From the IMG/VR virus record IMGVR_UViG_3300033233_000085, positions 1 to 40,613 of that record: a stretch of 40,613 nucleotides of DNA; one strand, written 5' to 3'. Position numbers and translations under genes: made by a program. The number at the start of each line of letters is the position of its first letter. Position 1 is the stretch's first letter. Shown one piece after another: positions 3,159-38,710 of this stretch. The notes below the pieces were generated by a model. That model did no database searches. It saw only the letters and a list, made by a program, of their open reading frames with translations, and was not told the origin of the DNA. The DNA is from a virus.

Positions 3159-3980
3159 TTGCGTGTGATCCGGGTTTTCCCAAGGGAGACGAAGGCTACT
3201 CCAACCGATGCCCTTGTCCGGGTTGGCGTTGGGCCGACGCTTTTCGATTCTGCCGACGAGGTCCATATCAGCGCGACTTTCTCGTGGGACCTCCCGATTG
3301 TCGACCACCTCGCGAAGGAATGGTCCGCCATCGCCCCCGTGAAGGTTGGCGGCCCTGCGATGGGGATGCCAGGGGGCGAGTTCTGCCCCGGCGAGTTTCT
3401 TCGCCCCGGCTACGTCATCACTTCTCGTGGATGCCCGAATCGGTGTTGGTTCTGCGACGTCTGGCGACGGGAGGGTCCGATCCGAGAGTTGCAGATCACG
3501 AACGGCGTGAACGTGTTGGACGACAACCTTCTCGCGTGTTCCGATGCCCACATTAGCGGCGTGTTCGATATGCTCGCTCGGGTGAGGACGTCAAAGACGC
3601 GGGTCGTTTTCACGGGGGGACTTGAGGCGGCACGGCTGAAGGAGTGGCACGTTCTCCGGTTGCGGGATCTCCACCCGCATGGGATATTCTTCGCCTATGA
3701 CACCCCGGATGATCTCGCGCCTTTGCGCCGGGCGGGGGAGATGATTCTTGGAACGGTTTACAAGCGGGGGTCGCATTGCCTCCGGGCCTACGTCCTCGTA
3801 GGTTATCCGAAGGACACAATGGAATCCGCAGAAAAAAGGATGCGCGAGTGCCTCGCCGCCGGGTTCACGCCGATGGCGATGCTCTACCGCGACCGAGAGG
3901 GCAAGCGCGATCCTTCTTGGGCGCGGTGGCAACGAATATGGGCTCGCCCCGCGCTAATTTACGCCGCCGGAGGTTTTTAA
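3159..3980 (+). CDS. radical SAM protein
   Basis: The 273-residue protein has C92-x3-C96-x2-C99 (RGCPNRCWFC), the radical SAM motif that binds a 4Fe-4S cluster and S-adenosylmethionine. The region before it (about 20-70) reads like the small N-terminal domain found in B12-binding-type radical SAM proteins, shortened. I chose TTG 3159 because AGGAGG ends 5 bases upstream; GTG 3165 is the alternative. The substrate cannot be read from the sequence. The gene stands between the candidate origin and the terminase genes, so modification of phage or host nucleic acid is possible but is inference only. Its stop overlaps the next ATG. Confidence 0.85.
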   Translation: MRVIRVFPRETKATPTDALVRVGVGPTLFDSADEVHISATFSWDLPIVDHLAKEWSAIAPVKVGGPAMGMPGGEFCPGEFLRPGYVITSRGCPNRCWFCDVWRREGPIRELQITNGVNVLDDNLLACSDAHISGVFDMLARVRTSKTRVVFTGGLEAARLKEWHVLRLRDLHPHGIFFAYDTPDDLAPLRRAGEMILGTVYKRGSHCLRAYVLVGYPKDTMESAEKRMRECLAAGFTPMAMLYRDREGKRDPSWARWQRIWARPALIYAAGGF

Positions 3981-4645
3981 TGACGATCGTGAAGGATTCG
4001 CCGAAGGAAGTCGTTGTGCCGGAGGTAGTCGGGCCGGATGTTCGGAAGGTATCTCGCCGGGAGCGTCCTGGGGAGTTTGGTTTAGCGGGTCAGGGTCGGG
4101 CTGCGGTTTATCAGGGGGAGCGTCCTGACGATGCCCAGGTGAAGGCGATGGCTCCTCCGAAGCCGGCGAGCAAGCGGGCGTTGAGCCGGATGGGCCTGAC
4201 GAGGAAGGAGGCGACGTACCTCCAGGCGTTGGTGGGCTCGAAGACTCACATTGAGGCATACGAGCGGGCGTTTCCGATGGGGAAGGCGAAGTACGCATCG
4301 CGGAGGAAGCAAGCCTCTCGGATCCACACCTCGATTCTCGGGAAGATCGGGGACGAGGGTTTGATGGAGGCGATGGGGATCGGGAAGCAAGCGACGTTCG
4401 AGAAACTCCGGCAGTTGAAGGACGCGAAGGTCATCAAGGCGTTCATCGTGCCGGAGAGCGGGGCGGTGGTCGAGGCTGGTCCTTACGAGGACAACCAGAC
4501 GCAGTTGGGGGCGACGAAGTTGCTGACGCAGATTCACAAGCTGGTGCCGGACGAAAAGGGCGGTGGTGGCGGTACGGTGATCGTGAACGTGGTGCAATAT
4601 AACCCTCCAGATTTTCCAAAATGGCCGGGAGGGGGTAGGGTATAA
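3980..4645 (+). CDS. terS: terminase small subunit (probable)
   Basis: This 221-residue protein starts at an ATG overlapping the radical SAM stop, with GGAGG just upstream. The first 65 residues look disordered. Residues about 66-130 form a basic helix-turn-helix-like block (LTRKEATYLQALV, then THIEAYERAF), the pattern of small terminase subunits that recognise DNA for packaging. The C-terminal part (about 175-221) is Gly/Pro-rich. It lies three genes before the large subunit, with two HNH proteins between, an arrangement common in phages. Assignment rests on the motif and position. Confidence 0.7.
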   Translation: MTIVKDSPKEVVVPEVVGPDVRKVSRRERPGEFGLAGQGRAAVYQGERPDDAQVKAMAPPKPASKRALSRMGLTRKEATYLQALVGSKTHIEAYERAFPMGKAKYASRRKQASRIHTSILGKIGDEGLMEAMGIGKQATFEKLRQLKDAKVIKAFIVPESGAVVEAGPYEDNQTQLGATKLLTQIHKLVPDEKGGGGGTVIVNVVQYNPPDFPKWPGGGRV

Positions 4646-30881: not shown

Positions 30882-31177
30882 GCTTCCTCCTTCGGCGGAT
30901 CGGGTAGAGGTTGCCAATGGGTCACCTCCCCGTCCACCCTCCAATGGACCTCCTCAAACTCGTTCGTCTCGTACCACCCCTCCTCGCAGTAATACTCGTC
31001 CGTCTTCTCGTCGTAGTCTTCCTCCCCAGAGACAGTGTCCGGGTGACACGCTAACGTAAACGGTGGGGCGTGTTGCGCCCGGAGTCTGCGCTTCTTCCCC
31101 TCGTACACCGTGGCGTAAACGATGACTGGCACACCCGGCTCCGGCAACCCGTCCTTCACGCCGATCCATCCCGTCAT
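30878..31177 (-). CDS. DUF551-like protein
   Basis: The 99-residue protein starting at 31177 reads WIGVKDGLPEPGVPVIVY and ends THWQPLPDPPKEEA, the two conserved ends of DUF551, common in phages and of unknown function. The acidic middle contains EEGWYETNEFEEVHWR. ATG 31177 lies at the end of a 106-bp repeat that also carries the start of the exonuclease gene at 31968, so its ribosome site is a copy of that one. An upstream in-frame ATG at 31291 overlaps the exonuclease stop and would add 38 residues encoded by the repeat. Confidence 0.75.
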   Translation of the reverse strand: MTGWIGVKDGLPEPGVPVIVYATVYEGKKRRLRAQHAPPFTLACHPDTVSGEEDYDEKTDEYYCEEGWYETNEFEEVHWRVDGEVTHWQPLPDPPKEEA

Positions 31178-31277
31178 GGGTACAACTCCCTTCTCGTGTG
31201 GCTGCACGTCAACGCCGCCAGGAATCTCGATCGGTCCCGTGGATCCTCGTGTCGCACGGGTCGTGCCTTGTCTCCCT
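31172..31277 (-). repeat. 106-bp perfect direct repeat, copy 1
   Basis: Identical to 31963-32068. On the minus strand it ends with the ATG-ACG start of the DUF551 gene. In copy 2 the same bases encode the last 33 or so residues of the RecB-like nuclease and the ATG-ACG start of the exonuclease gene. Perfect identity implies a recent duplication or active recombination. Confidence 0.95.
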
Positions 31278-31287
31278 TCGTCGACCG

Positions 31288-31968
31288 TCATGAAGTAACT
31301 CCTTTCCTGCGGCGTTGAAGTTCTATTCTTATGGTGTGAGCCACCCCCGCATCGAAGTCCTGTCTGGTCGCCCATTCCAGGTAGTCAGTAGGAACCTCGC
31401 TCCACGGCTTCCCAAAGTGCTTCCCCATCGGTACGCGGGGGAGGAGGGGAGGTTCGTCGCTCCATGCGATCAACTGCTCAACGCTCGCCAGTGATAGGGC
31501 CTTGATGAGAATCCGCGCCGTTACGTGGCAGTCGGGGAGCGCACGATGCGGAGGCATTCCGGCCTCGCCCGGGTCGCAGCCTTCGAGGAAATATCGGAGG
31601 ACGGAATTCGTATGCCGCGGCGAATCAGGCCACATCCGGAGCGCGCACTTGTACGTGTCGATCCAGGGGGACCCTTCTGGGTTGAAGAACTGCTTTTCAA
31701 AGTCGGCGTTGTGGGCGCAGAACACGAACGCCCCGATGGAGAGACTCTTCATGGCATCCGCCCACGGAATGCCGTACTCTATTTCCGCATCGGATATATG
31801 GTGCGCGGCCCGAGCCTCCACGCTGACTGGCCGCGAAGAGCAAACGACCTCTGACCACGCGCTGCCTATGGTGCCCCCATTGAGCACGTCCACGTACGCC
31901 GCCTCGACCACGTCCGCCGCGGGGGGAAGGCCGGTCGTCTCAAAATCTATGACCCGTATCATCGTCAT
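31288..31968 (-). CDS. DEDD 3'-5' exonuclease with DUF3820-like tail
   Basis: The 226-residue protein starts VIDFETTGLPP (D8-x-E10), the first motif of DnaQ/RNase T-type exonucleases; CAHNADFEKQF (about 100-110) is the second and HRALPDCHVTARIL the third, giving the DEDDh set. The C-terminal segment MGKHFGKPWSEVPTDYLEWA fits DUF3820. It likely trims 3' ends in recombination or degrades host DNA. The ATG overlaps the stop of the RecB-like nuclease gene. Confidence 0.85.
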   Translation of the reverse strand: MTMIRVIDFETTGLPPAADVVEAAYVDVLNGGTIGSAWSEVVCSSRPVSVEARAAHHISDAEIEYGIPWADAMKSLSIGAFVFCAHNADFEKQFFNPEGSPWIDTYKCALRMWPDSPRHTNSVLRYFLEGCDPGEAGMPPHRALPDCHVTARILIKALSLASVEQLIAWSDEPPLLPRVPMGKHFGKPWSEVPTDYLEWATRQDFDAGVAHTIRIELQRRRKGVTS

Positions 31969-32068
31969 GGGTACAACTCCCTTCTCGTGTGGCTGCACGT
32001 CAACGCCGCCAGGAATCTCGATCGGTCCCGTGGATCCTCGTGTCGCACGGGTCGTGCCTTGTCTCCCT
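31963..32068 (-). repeat. 106-bp perfect direct repeat, copy 2
   Basis: Second copy of 31172-31277, 791 bases away. Here it spans the nuclease gene's 3' end, its stop, and the overlapping start of the exonuclease gene. The gene cassette between the copies is exactly the exonuclease. Confidence 0.95.
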
Positions 32069-34263: not shown

Positions 34264-34543
34264 TCGCCACCTCCTCCTGTCGTTTTGTGAACCGTCCATC
34301 GAATCCATTGACCGAGATCTCGACCCTCATGTCGGGCGTGATCCTCGCCTTCTTGCCGTATTCCACCGCATCGACGCCGGTCCTCCAGACGGCGTACTGC
34401 GGCGACTCCGCACGGGACACGATCCCCGCCGGGATCTGCTTGCTTGCGAACCATCCGAGCCAGGTCTTCACGGCGTCTGGCGTGTGGAACCATCTTGAAA
34501 AGACGAAAGGGCCGGGCTTGCCGATGTTCGTGGGTTGAGTCAT
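34232..34543 (-). CDS. hypothetical protein
   Basis: The 103-residue protein reads FVFSRWFHTPDAVKTWLGWFASK at the start and FDGRFTKRQEEVANEFARVHK at the end. No family recognised. It overlaps the stop of the gene at 34540 (ATGA), so the operon is tightly packed here. Confidence 0.6.
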   Translation of the reverse strand: MTQPTNIGKPGPFVFSRWFHTPDAVKTWLGWFASKQIPAGIVSRAESPQYAVWRTGVDAVEYGKKARITPDMRVEISVNGFDGRFTKRQEEVANEFARVHKVA

Positions 34544-35001
34544 GCCGACACCTCCAGGGCCTTTCCCTTCGGCAACCTCCTCGCCGACACCCGCGCCGAC
34601 AGGGAGAGCGTCGCCGCGATGTTCTGGTAGTGGTCGCAGGAAGCGACATCCTCCGGCGACAGGTCCCTACGTTCGGTCGTCGCGGCGACTGCCCCGGCCC
34701 TCCTGATGAGTTTCATCCCTGAGTTGCCTTTCCTCGCGACGTGTTGCACCCTCCCCGGAGGAGGCAGGATCAGGAAGCCCTCGTTCGGGATGGCGTCCAT
34801 GACGACGTTGTTCTGACGGAACAACAGTTTCCTCCACGACGTTGTCACCGTCTTGAATCTGTTCGAGTCACGATCAACCTTGATCGCCTTCGCGATCTCC
34901 GCATATCCGATGATCGCACCCTCTTTCGGAACGCCGAACTCTTTTATCAGCAGATCGACGTCTATCCGAGTCGGGATCCCCTGGAAATAAGGTTTTCCCA
35001 T
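34540..35001 (-). CDS. hypothetical protein with winged-helix-like N-terminus
   Basis: I chose ATG 35001 (AGGAGAAGG upstream), giving 153 residues. The open frame runs further upstream only because the pentamer array has no stops. The N-terminal half (DVDLLIKEFGVPKEGAIIGYAEIAKAIKV, then RFKTVTTSWRKLLFR) looks like a helix-turn-helix with a wing, so DNA binding is possible. The C-terminal half is basic (SARVSARRLPKG). It lies directly downstream of array 1. Confidence 0.55.
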   Translation of the reverse strand: MGKPYFQGIPTRIDVDLLIKEFGVPKEGAIIGYAEIAKAIKVDRDSNRFKTVTTSWRKLLFRQNNVVMDAIPNEGFLILPPPGRVQHVARKGNSGMKLIRRAGAVAATTERRDLSPEDVASCDHYQNIAATLSLSARVSARRLPKGKALEVSA

Positions 35002-35031
35002 CACCTTCTCCTTTCTGATTTTTTTTCCCAT

Positions 35032-35333
35032 GATCCATGCCGTGCCGCGCCGAGCCCTGCCTTGCCCTGCCGAGCCTCGATCCATGCCTTGCCTGACCAC
35101 GCCTTGCCCAACCTCGCCGCGTTCCCTGCCCGACCTTGCCGCGCCCCGCCTCACCAAGCCTTGCCCTGCCCGACCGGGTTCCATGCCCCGCCGAGCCCTG
35201 CCTTGCCCCGCCTCACCAAGCCATGCCTTGCCCGACCGGGTTCCCCGCCTTGCCGAGCCCTGCCCTGCCGGGCCATGCCGTGTTCCATGCCTAGCCATGC
35301 CGGGCCGAGCCGTGCCCTGCCATGCCTCGATCC
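35032..35333 (-). repeat. degenerate pentamer array 1 (NNRCC)n with GWTCC marks
   Basis: On the plus strand the tract reads as pentamers NNRCC (mostly NNGCC), with free first two bases. It is broken by GATCC or GTTCC marks at 35032, 35079, 35121, 35178, 35240, 35282 and 35329. The intervals are 47, 42, 57, 62, 42 and 47 bases, each 5n+2, because every block ends with an extra dinucleotide before the next mark. The last mark directly touches the stop codon of the gene at 35334. Block lengths do not keep a reading frame, so the tract is non-coding. Confidence 0.9.
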
Positions 35334-36002
35334 CTACGCCTTGTCCACCTCCGCGATGAACTTCCCGAACGACCCCGGCGACTTCGGGGATGAGGGCCTC
35401 CAGTCGCCGATGCCCGCATAGCAACCGGCGAACGTCAGAATGTTCTGGAGGACGTCCCTCGTGATCTGGTCGTCGAGCACGGTGATCGTCCCGCCGCACT
35501 CCCACTTGTCGAACCTCGGACGGACGCGAACGTGCTTCGCCATCCCGATCTTCGCCCGCTTGACGAACAGCATGAAGCCGGACTTCAGTGCGACCTCCTC
35601 GTGGATCGAGAAGTCTTCCTCGTCGATCAGCGCATCCTTGATCGGCCCCCAGGTGATCTCCTTCCCGTCGACGATGACGGGCCAGGCACTCTGATCGACG
35701 ACCAGGCCGCTCTGCGTCTGCGCCTTGAAGGTCGTCTGCCCCTTGCCGGTCGGACACCGCTTGCCTCCCTCGCGGAGTACCGTCATCAGGTTGTCGGACG
35801 GGACAACGATCTTGCCTCCCTCGACGTAAGCACTCCCGAGCCACCGCCACGCCGGGGACCGATCGTCACCGGGGATCGACCCCTTCTTGTTCGCGGGATC
35901 CTTCCCCCACTTGTTCATCACCTCCGACCACGACAGGTTGTCGTTGTGCATCAGCATCGGAGTCTCTCCTACCAGGTGTACCGCATACGTTCTCGCTTTC
36001 AT
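35334..36002 (-). CDS. protein of unknown function between the two pentamer arrays (RAMP/Cas7-like start)
   Basis: The 222-residue protein starts at ATG 36002 with GGAGGCGAGG upstream. It opens YAVHLVGETPMLMHND (about 6-21), a beta-strand plus PLLMH-type motif seen at the start of some RAMP/Cas7-like and phage proteins. Then come PAWRWLGSAYVEGGKIVVPSDNLMTVLREGGKRC (about 50-83), a Lys-Gly-rich loop, and GCYAGIGDWRPSSPKSPGSFGKF at the end, a pattern also seen in RAMP-type folds. RNA or repeat binding is suggested by the flanking arrays but is speculation. No nuclease motif seen. Confidence 0.55.
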   Translation of the reverse strand: MKARTYAVHLVGETPMLMHNDNLSWSEVMNKWGKDPANKKGSIPGDDRSPAWRWLGSAYVEGGKIVVPSDNLMTVLREGGKRCPTGKGQTTFKAQTQSGLVVDQSAWPVIVDGKEITWGPIKDALIDEEDFSIHEEVALKSGFMLFVKRAKIGMAKHVRVRPRFDKWECGGTITVLDDQITRDVLQNILTFAGCYAGIGDWRPSSPKSPGSFGKFIAEVDKA

Positions 36003-36037
36003 CGCCTCGCCTCCTTGAGTGAGTTGTTGGATACCAA

Positions 36038-36329
36038 GTTCCACGCCTCGCCTCGCCCAACCCAGCCTCGCCTTGCCGCACCTCACCGCGCCTTGCCGCA
36101 CCTCACCGCGTTCCACGCCGTGCCCAACCATGCCATGCCAGGCCACGCCCCACCGCGCTCCATGCCGAGCCGCGCCATACCGAGCCATGCCGTTCCGAAC
36201 CTTGCTCCAAGCCCTGCCTTACCGCGCCTTGCCAAGCCTGACCGAGCCGAACCGTGCCGAACCCTGCCGTACCAAGATCCATGCCCCGCCTTGCCGAGCC
36301 ACGCCGCGCCAAGCCCCGCCGCGATCCTC
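36038..36329 (-). repeat. degenerate pentamer array 2 (NNRCC)n with GNTCC marks
   Basis: This has the same architecture as array 1. Marks GTTCC, GTTCC, GCTCC, GCTCC, GATCC and GATCC lie at 36038, 36110, 36157, 36204, 36276 and 36323, with intervals 72, 47, 47, 72 and 47 bases (13, 8, 8, 13 and 8 pentamers plus 7). One extra GTTCC at 36192 sits in pentamer phase. The array starts just after the stop of the gene at 36332 and ends about 25 bases before the ribosome site of the gene starting at 36002. Confidence 0.9.
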
Positions 36330-37701: not shown

Positions 37702-37741
37702 CCCGCCAGCCCGCATGAATAGGGCATCGGTGTTTTCCCCC

Positions 37742-37771
37742 TTGACATGGTTCGGCGAAATGGTGTCTACT
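37742..37771 (+). promoter_or_regulatory. candidate rightward early promoter
   Basis: TTGACA (37742-37747) is followed 18 bases later by TCTACT (37766-37771). It lies 42 bases before the first rightward early gene, ahead of AGGAGGG. The -10 is weak. Confidence 0.45.
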
Positions 37772-37812
37772 CGTTACGTCATACGACACCAGATTGAGAG
37801 AGGAGGGAGCGC

Positions 37813-37983
37813 ATGGCGGCACCGTCATACTTCACCACGAAATTGCAGACTGCGTTCAAGTGCTTACGATGCGGGCATGTGTGGATACAGCGGTACCCTG
37901 GACGGCTTCCGGTGTCGTGCCCGTCGAGCCGTTGCCGAAGTAAGTCTTGGAAGATTCCGCCGAAAGAAAGGGCCAAGCGGTGA
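37813..37983 (+). CDS. small zinc-ribbon protein, first rightward early gene
   Basis: AGGAGGG lies 6 bases before ATG. The 56 residues contain C17-x2-C20 and C36-x4-C41 (FKCLRCGHVW ... SCPSSRC) and a Lys/Arg-rich end. The pattern is that of a zinc ribbon. First in its operon after the divergent promoter region, so an early host-takeover or regulatory role is plausible, not shown. Confidence 0.6.
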   Translation: MAAPSYFTTKLQTAFKCLRCGHVWIQRYPGRLPVSCPSSRCRSKSWKIPPKERAKR

Positions 37984-38027
37984 GCCGGAACCTGGCCATG
38001 TCCAAACTGAAGTGTGGCATCTACTGA

Positions 38028-38052
38028 GTAGCCGCGCCAGCGGAGAAGGAGG
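38028..38052 (+). repeat. 25-bp leader repeat with ribosome site, copy 1
   Basis: The 25 bases match 38707-38731 with a single mismatch. Each copy has a CCGC-GCCA-GCGG hairpin followed by a GGAGG ribosome site. This copy precedes the alanine-rich repeat gene. Confidence 0.8.
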
Positions 38053-38056
38053 TGTT

Positions 38057-38710
38057 ATGCAGAAGATTGTCTTCGTTACATCGCTGTACCGACTGCGGAA
38101 GTTTAACGCCTGCTCGGACCGATACGCGCATCTCGTCGATAAACTCGGCCCGGAGTGGGGCGACAAGGACGATATCAACCTGCTGGACATCCTGAAGCAC
38201 AACGGAACCGCCGACTGCCTGTGGGCGCTGTGCGCCACGGTACAGCATCCGGACGCCGACAGGGCGATGCGCCTCATGGCCGCCGACTTCGCGGAGGCCG
38301 TGCTGTCAATCTTCGAAAAGGAATACCCGAAGGATGACCGGCCATGGAAAGCGATACAGGCGGCAAGAGACTCCGCCAACGGAAAGATAACCGATCAGGA
38401 GCGGGCCGCCGCAGGGGCCGCCGCAGGGGCCGCCGCATGGGCCGCCGCATGGGCCGCCGCAGGGGACGCCGCATGGGCCGCCGCAGGGGCCGCCGCACGG
38501 GACGCCGCAGGGGACGCCGCATGGGCCGCCGCACGGGACGCCGCAGGGGCCGCCGCATGGGCCGCCGCAGGGGACGCCGCAGGGGACGCCGCAGGGGACG
38601 CCGCATGGGCCGCCGCAGGGGACGCCGCATGGGCCGCCGCATGGGCCGCCGCACGGGACGCCGCATGGGACGAGCAAGCGAAGATCATCCATAAGTATTT
38701 AGGGAGGTAG
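38057..38710 (+). CDS. alanine-rich tandem-repeat protein
   Basis: I chose ATG 38057 because AAGGAGG lies 5 bases upstream, giving 217 residues. Residues 1-115 form a helical domain with PDADRAMRLMAADFAEAVL and ending PWKAIQAARDSANGKITDQ, a pattern seen in phage proteins labelled as Imm-5-like. Residues about 116-206 are 23 tandem four-residue units A-x-y-A, where x is Trp, Gly or Arg and y is Ala or Asp; they would form a long alpha-helix. Such AAWAAARAA repeats are common in phage accessory proteins; no function is established. Confidence 0.75.
   Translation: MQKIVFVTSLYRLRKFNACSDRYAHLVDKLGPEWGDKDDINLLDILKHNGTADCLWALCATVQHPDADRAMRLMAADFAEAVLSIFEKEYPKDDRPWKAIQAARDSANGKITDQERAAAGAAAGAAAWAAAWAAAGDAAWAAAGAAARDAAGDAAWAAARDAAGAAAWAAAGDAAGDAAGDAAWAAAGDAAWAAAWAAARDAAWDEQAKIIHKYLGR
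38402..38671 (+). repeat. 12-bp minisatellite within the alanine-rich gene
   Basis: Twenty-three units of 12 bases, NGG-GNC-GCC-GCA, run from 38402 to 38671. Only two bases vary: the first of codon 1 (T, G or C) and the second of codon 2 (C or A). TGG is nearly always followed by GCC, and CGG (after the first unit) by GAC. Perfect phase across all units implies replication slippage or unequal recombination with selection at two sites. Confidence 0.95.

What the first reader, a model, noticed from the sequence alone, without database searches (positions are those of the whole stretch)
35032..36329. Two arrays of a degenerate pentamer with marks spaced at 5n+2
Array 1 (35032-35333) and array 2 (36038-36329) are built from NNRCC pentamers with freely varying first two bases. 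They are broken by GATCC, GTTCC or GCTCC marks. Intervals between marks are 47, 42, 57, 62, 42, 47 and 72, 47, 47, 72, 47 bases: all eleven equal 2 modulo 5. Each block is one mark, 7 to 13 pentamers and one extra dinucleotide. The phase is strictly kept while the two free bases look random, so something reads the 5-base spacing (about half a helical turn) or its RNA form GGYNN. Both arrays are transcribed in the leftward operon, directly after a stop codon, and do not keep a reading frame. I know of no described element with this grammar.
Basis: seen in the sequence. Interest (0 to 1): 0.9.

Follow-up and report, generated by a model that had tools for sequence, protein, structure and literature searches.

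The report
VIPR guide-RNA arrays of a phage
The two odd five-base-repeat tracts are guide-RNA arrays of a VIPR system, a recently described phage-borne relative of CRISPR that reads only two of every five guide letters, and here each guide is set off by a fixed seven-base punctuation mark.

Summary
On the minus strand, window 35030-35333 and 36036-36327 are arrays of GGYNN pentamers split into 6 and 5 blocks by 7-nt GGAHCNN marks, and all eleven mark intervals are 5n+2. The claim that no such element is described no longer holds. A 2026 preprint (PMC13142463) describes VIPR: phage-encoded RAMP proteins with vrRNAs of alternating GGY/NN, whose NN bases read DNA with a one-base skip. The gene between the two arrays (35334-36002) is a Vipr homologue: PDB 36pp "SUSP1 Vipr protein", E=6e-8 for the single sequence and 1.2e-26 for the profile. 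Its predicted fold matches Cas7 subunits. A DNA-only scan found 38 more viral stretches. Of 46 array loci, 35 encode this protein, and 52 of 52 arrays lie on its strand. The +2 mark is strict: 144 of 175 register breaks, all at GGRNC. I found no target for the window's own guides. One guide of a mycobacteriophage relative matches rival phages' tape-measure gene 18/18 under the one-base-skip rule, in codon register. Verdict: a real new member of a very new kind; the punctuation may be undescribed.

The parts
36036..36327 (-). vrRNA array 2 (upstream of vipr): 5 guide blocks of 8,13,8,8,13 GGYNN pentamers, 6 marks
35030..35333 (-). vrRNA array 1 (downstream of vipr): 6 guide blocks of 8,7,11,10,7,8 GGYNN pentamers, 7 marks; blocks 3 and 4 are an 89% identical 62-nt duplication
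35334..36002 (-). vipr gene, 222 aa RAMP protein with G-loop GIGDWRPSSPKSPGSFG; ends with the TAG that abuts array 1
34540..35001 (-). candidate vap (Vipr-accessory) gene, 153 aa, predicted winged-helix-like DNA-binding fold; homologues recur beside the arrays in about two dozen other loci
36321..36327 (-). array 2 mark 1 GGATCGC
36274..36280 (-). array 2 mark 2 GGATCTT
36202..36208 (-). array 2 mark 3 GGAGCAA
36155..36161 (-). array 2 mark 4 GGAGCGC
36108..36114 (-). array 2 mark 5 GGAACGC
36036..36042 (-). array 2 closing mark GGAACTT
35327..35333 (-). array 1 mark 1 GGATCGA
35280..35286 (-). array 1 mark 2 GGAACAC
35238..35244 (-). array 1 mark 3 GGAACCC
35176..35182 (-). array 1 mark 4 GGAACCC
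35119..35125 (-). array 1 mark 5 GGAACGC
35077..35083 (-). array 1 mark 6 GGATCGA
35030..35036 (-). array 1 closing mark GGATCAT

Best explanation
The region is a VIPR locus in a leftward phage operon, in the order array 2 - vipr - array 1 - vap. The arrays are transcribed as GGYNN RNA. Vipr, a Cas7-like RAMP protein, coats the RNA with about one subunit per pentamer. It holds the GGY triplets out of pairing and presents the NN dinucleotides to double-stranded DNA. Target DNA therefore reads NNxNNx..., with one skipped base that tends to fall on codon wobble positions, and bound target genes of competing phages are repressed. Each stretch between two GGAHCNN marks is one guide (11 guides here). 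The mark, with its +2 shift of the pentamer register, is the guide boundary where subunit coating or RNA processing starts and ends. Shown here: the grammar, the Vipr homology, the predicted fold, the co-occurrence and strand rule, and absence of good self-targets. Taken from the preprint for other VIPRs: RNA expression, Vipr-RNA complex, one-base-skip reading, repression. Inferred: one subunit per pentamer, that the marks delimit guides, and what the window's guides target.
For: GGY/NN arrays match the published vrRNA definition. The adjacent protein matches PDB 36pp SUSP1 Vipr at E=6e-8 (phmmer) and 1.2e-26 (profile of 24 homologues, aligned nearly end to end). The AlphaFold2 model (pLDDT 90) fits an RRM core with a G-loop, and its top Foldseek matches are backbone subunits of type VII and III CRISPR complexes (E 3.7e-6). 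Loci collected by DNA grammar alone encode the same protein in 35 of 46 cases, most of the rest being contig ends; all 52 arrays in those loci are on the vipr strand and near it. Register breaks are +2 in 144 of 175 cases, always GGRNC. Mark spacing is centred near 10 pentamers, within reach of the published 9-16 repeats. Cluster F1 mycobacteriophages differ by gain or loss of whole blocks. A Quico guide matches Che8 and Squirty tape-measure genes 18/18 with a one-base skip, skips on wobble positions, no match up to 3 mismatches in Quico itself. No window guide matches the window well.
Against: No target was found for the window's own guides: three guide cores had no exact match in IMG/VR. Array 3' ends in the window lack the shared structured tail described for type II vrRNAs. 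Window blocks of 7-8 pentamers are shorter than the published 9-16 repeats. Expression was not tested. The natural-target support comes from one guide of a related system, and the same guide also has a 17/18 match under a two-base skip (expected about 0.02 over the guides tested), so chance is not wholly excluded.
Confidence: 0.93

Rival explanations
1. VIPR locus, but the marks do not delimit guides: mature vrRNAs are longer, overlapping RNAs that run across one or more marks (the 'staggered arrays with overlapping vrRNAs' of the preprint), and the mark is an internal feature such as a 5' start or a processing site.
For: The preprint reports staggered arrays. Window blocks of 7-8 pentamers are shorter than the reported 9-16 repeats.
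Against: In cluster F1 mycobacteriophages, blocks between separators are gained and lost whole, and the one matched target covers exactly one such block. Homologous guides in different contigs often align from mark to mark.
Confidence: 0.25
2. The arrays are structural or recombinogenic DNA (G-rich non-template strand, G-quadruplex or R-loop) or sites for a DNA-binding protein with half-turn spacing, unrelated to RNA guidance.
For: GG every 5 bases; the array folds somewhat better than shuffles, z -3.2.
Against: Does not explain the adjacent Vipr gene in nearly all loci, the strict strand rule, the NN hypervariability, the boundary marks, or the codon-register target.
Confidence: 0.03
3. The tracts are slippage-made low-complexity DNA or assembly errors.
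For: Short tandem units; a local 62-nt duplication in array 1.
Against: Same grammar in unrelated contigs, an isolate Geothrix genome and, in a related form, many isolate mycobacteriophages. Slippage would copy NN as well, but NN varies while GGY and the mark do not.
Confidence: 0.01

Closest known systems
VIPR systems (Viral Interference Programmable Repeat; Vipr + vrRNA; PMC13142463, bioRxiv 2026), SUSP1 and P. fulva type II
   Same: Homologous Vipr protein (E 1.2e-26 to SUSP1 Vipr), GGY/NN RNA arrays flanking it, phage-borne minimal locus, a small accessory gene with a predicted DNA-binding fold.
   Different: Type II vrRNAs are separate units of about 100 nt with a structured 3' tail. Here many guides run head to tail, separated only by a 7-nt GGAHCNN mark that shifts register by +2, with no shared tail. 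Whether this equals the preprint's 'staggered arrays' (fig. S18) could not be checked.
VIPR-like locus of cluster F1 mycobacteriophages (Saal, Quico, Donkeykong, Brocalys, ByChance)
   Same: Divergent Vipr homologue, GGCNN arrays, blocks gained and lost whole.
   Different: Separators are 4-nt GGCA, usually after a constant GGCAT, and the array ends in a GNRA-capped hairpin.
Class 1 CRISPR-Cas (Cas7/Csm3 backbone)
   Same: Protein fold, and by homology periodic coating of a guide RNA.
   Different: No cas operon and no direct-repeat/spacer array; the guide is non-contiguous with a 5-nt period instead of 6.

Membership tests
VIPR | Vipr protein: RAMP homologue in the Vipr clade | tested here: met
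   PDB 36pp SUSP1 Vipr E 6e-8 and 1.2e-26; the only significant PDB sequence match
VIPR | RRM core with G-loop, CRISPR RAMP-like fold | tested here: met
   AlphaFold2 pLDDT 90; Foldseek top matches are Cas7-type subunits of type VII and III complexes; conserved DWRP...G.FG.F. The thumb domain was not separately assigned
VIPR | Tandem GGY/NN (YNNGG) repeats with conserved GGY and hypervariable NN next to vipr | tested here: met
VIPR | 9-16 repeats per vrRNA | tested here: inconclusive
   Window blocks have 7-13 pentamers (8-14 counting the mark NN); some fall below 9 unless vrRNAs overlap
VIPR | Invariable structured 3' tail after the repeat tract (described for type II) | tested here: not met
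   The two array ends of the window share no tail and do not fold better than shuffles. The preprint says array architecture varies among the seven types, so this argues against type II rather than against VIPR
VIPR | vap accessory gene | tested here: inconclusive
VIPR | NN read DNA with a 1-nt skip; targets in competing mobile elements | tested here: inconclusive
   None found for window guides; one 18/18 codon-register target for a Quico guide
VIPR | vrRNA expressed and bound by Vipr | not testable with these tools
   needs RNA sequencing and pull-down
CRISPR-Cas | Direct-repeat/spacer array and cas genes | tested here: not met
   Only GGYNN units and marks; the five genes in and beside the locus gave no significant Pfam match

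The most novel reading that the evidence does not exclude
GGAHC(N)2 is an undescribed punctuation code of VIPR arrays. A seven-base unit, often preceded by GGCRA, interrupts the pentamer register by exactly +2 and thereby ends one guide and starts the next. This lets one transcript carry many head-to-tail guides without tails or repeats.
Probability: 0.4. Interest if true: 0.75.

Novelty: new member of a known kind. Interest (0 to 1): 0.62.

Why it matters
VIPR was described in 2026 as a possible ancestor of CRISPR RAMP systems and as a compact programmable DNA binder. This locus, found from raw sequence alone, adds a clade with multiplex arrays and an explicit 7-nt guide boundary. That would make guide boundaries directly predictable from sequence and suggests a natural multiplexing format. 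The F1 mycobacteriophage match gives a concrete, testable phage-versus-phage target outside the clades studied in the preprint's main text.

Tried and rejected
Protein-coding array: every frame of (GGYNN)n is open except at chance stops, and GGTGA/GGTAA stops occur, so openness means nothing. Known RNA families: none at gathering scores in 14 array loci, and only a sub-threshold chance match in the window; no hammerhead ribozyme found. Target searches without a result: three window guides in IMG/VR, a Geothrix guide in 77 genomes, a guide shared by L029 and L046, a window guide in 28 mostly array-bearing viral contigs with up to 3 mismatches. An F1 guide family gave 7 IMG/VR matches, all in low-GC unrelated contigs, so chance. 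An L045 guide hit L060 at 11 consecutive NN but its flanks fail, compatible with chance. An all-guides by all-loci scan (219 guides, 2.3 Mb) gave no convincing further target. Literature: only one paper names VIPR/vrRNA; its supplement could not be opened.

Full report
What was checked. The window (a 40.6 kb virus record) holds two tracts on its minus strand that parse almost without exception (one GGAAC pentamer in array 2) into 7-nt marks (GGATC, GGAAC or GGAGC plus two bases) and GGYNN pentamers. The intervals are exactly those reported, all 2 modulo 5. A simple unit model scores them 296 and 256 bits; the best of 40 Markov resamplings of the window reaches 26.6.

Generality. A DNA pattern with the grammar alone (four pentamers, one mark, four pentamers) was scanned in IMG/VR and gave 38 stretches of DNA. 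It gave 7 more in GTDB genomes, including the isolate Geothrix campi. In these loci, among 175 places where four in-register GGY units are followed by a break and a new register, 144 breaks are exactly +2. All 144 carry GGRNC at the break (GGAAC 101, GGATC 27, GGACC 9, GGAGC 4, GGGAC 2, GGGTC 1), while 18 are plain substitutions that keep register. The search pattern required one +2 mark per locus, so the count is somewhat favoured, but the other marks in each locus were free. Marks lie mostly 7-13 pentamers apart. The pentamer before a mark is often GGCGA or GGCAA, and the first base after GGAHC is a purine in 87% of cases, so the conserved mark may be nearer GGCRA-GGAHC-RN.

Identity. A literature search found PMC13142463 (bioRxiv 2026, read). 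It describes VIPR: a phage-encoded RAMP protein (Vipr) and vrRNAs of 9-16 YNNGG repeats, whose NN dinucleotides recognise double-stranded DNA with a one-base skip, used between competing phages. The gene between the two window arrays is a homologue of SUSP1 Vipr (PDB 36pp; E 6e-8 by sequence, 1.2e-26 by profile, aligned over profile positions 4-219). Its AlphaFold2 model (pLDDT 90) matches the Cas7-type backbone subunits of type VII and type III CRISPR complexes. Of 46 array-bearing loci, 35 encode a homologue of this protein and all 52 arrays in them lie on its strand. Most of the others are contig ends where the gene could not be seen, and one of them, L049, has a weak homologue. A second gene (window 34540-35001) recurs beside the arrays. 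It is predicted to have a winged-helix-like DNA-binding fold (weak matches), consistent with a vap gene. The arrays were collected without any reference to the protein, so this co-occurrence is independent support.

Mechanism. By homology to VIPR, array RNA is bound by Vipr, GGY positions are held unpaired and NN positions read DNA. In the window the guides would be the 11 blocks between marks. That the marks are guide boundaries is inferred. Supporting it, cluster F1 mycobacteriophages carry a divergent Vipr and GGCNN arrays whose blocks, separated by GGCA, are gained and lost whole between close relatives. ByChance lacks a block that Saal has, and Brocalys lacks blocks that Donkeykong has. 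Homologous guides in different contigs often align from mark to mark.

Targets. For the window's own guides no target was found: three 10-dinucleotide cores under the one-base-skip rule have no exact match in IMG/VR, and no guide matches the window itself well. For F1 guides, 1.03 Mb of phage sequence, all from mycobacteriophages, was scanned. One Quico guide (AA TT AT TT TT AT GC CC TC) matches Che8 and Squirty 18 of 18 with a one-base skip, at about 3e-5 expected per guide and about 4e-4 over the 12 guides scanned. The site lies in the tape-measure gene, the skipped bases fall on codon third positions, the two phages differ there only at a skipped base, and Quico has no such site up to 3 mismatches. 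The tenth dinucleotide, which mismatches, is the constant AT that precedes the separator in most F1 blocks. That guide boundary was noticed after the hit, when the match stood at 19 of 20. A caution: the same guide also matches one site 17/18 under a two-base skip. That is expected about 0.02 times over the guides, so chance is not wholly excluded.

What differs. The main text of the preprint describes type II vrRNAs with an invariable structured 3' tail. The window array ends share no tail and do not fold better than shuffles, whereas F1 arrays end in a GNRA-capped hairpin. The preprint mentions staggered arrays with overlapping vrRNAs; its supplement could not be read, so whether the GGAHC mark is already described is unknown. 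The locus is therefore filed as a new member of VIPR, with an array format that may be a new variant.

Score. Interest stays above average because the punctuation rule is strict, widespread and testable.

Noticed in passing
L041, L042, L043, L061, L062 (cluster F1 Mycobacterium phages Donkeykong, Saal, Quico, Brocalys, ByChance), beside the immunity repressor/antirepressor region: These isolate phages carry a divergent VIPR-like locus with 4-nt GGCA separators. In several records the array is covered by annotated 'hypothetical protein' reading frames that are probably not genes.
   Followed up: partly
NC_004680.2:10432-10460 (L080) and NC_026588.1:10286-10314 (L079), minus strand: Predicted target of a Quico guide in the tape-measure genes of phages Che8 and Squirty, 18/18 under the one-base-skip rule and in codon register.
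   Followed up: yes
window 31172-31277 and 31963-32068: Perfect 106-nt direct repeat, 791 bases apart, near the 5' ends of two leftward genes.
   Followed up: no
window 38403-38669: About 22 copies of a 12-base tandem repeat (GGGCCGCCGCAG) inside the rightward ORF 37715-38710.
   Followed up: no
L044:238-398 and 580-690: Two arrays of a goat-rumen Desulfovibrionaceae contig share the same 3' flank, which can fold into a hairpin, resembling the vrRNA tail.
   Followed up: partly
L045 blocks 2 and 3; window array 1 blocks 3 and 4: Neighbouring guides share long runs of NN with a few changed dinucleotides, as if duplicated and then adapted to variants of one target.
   Followed up: partly
L050 (Thermoguttaceae MAG), 3902-4314: Array with GGAAC marks but no Vipr homologue detected in the 8 kb held; possibly a more distant Vipr.
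   Followed up: no
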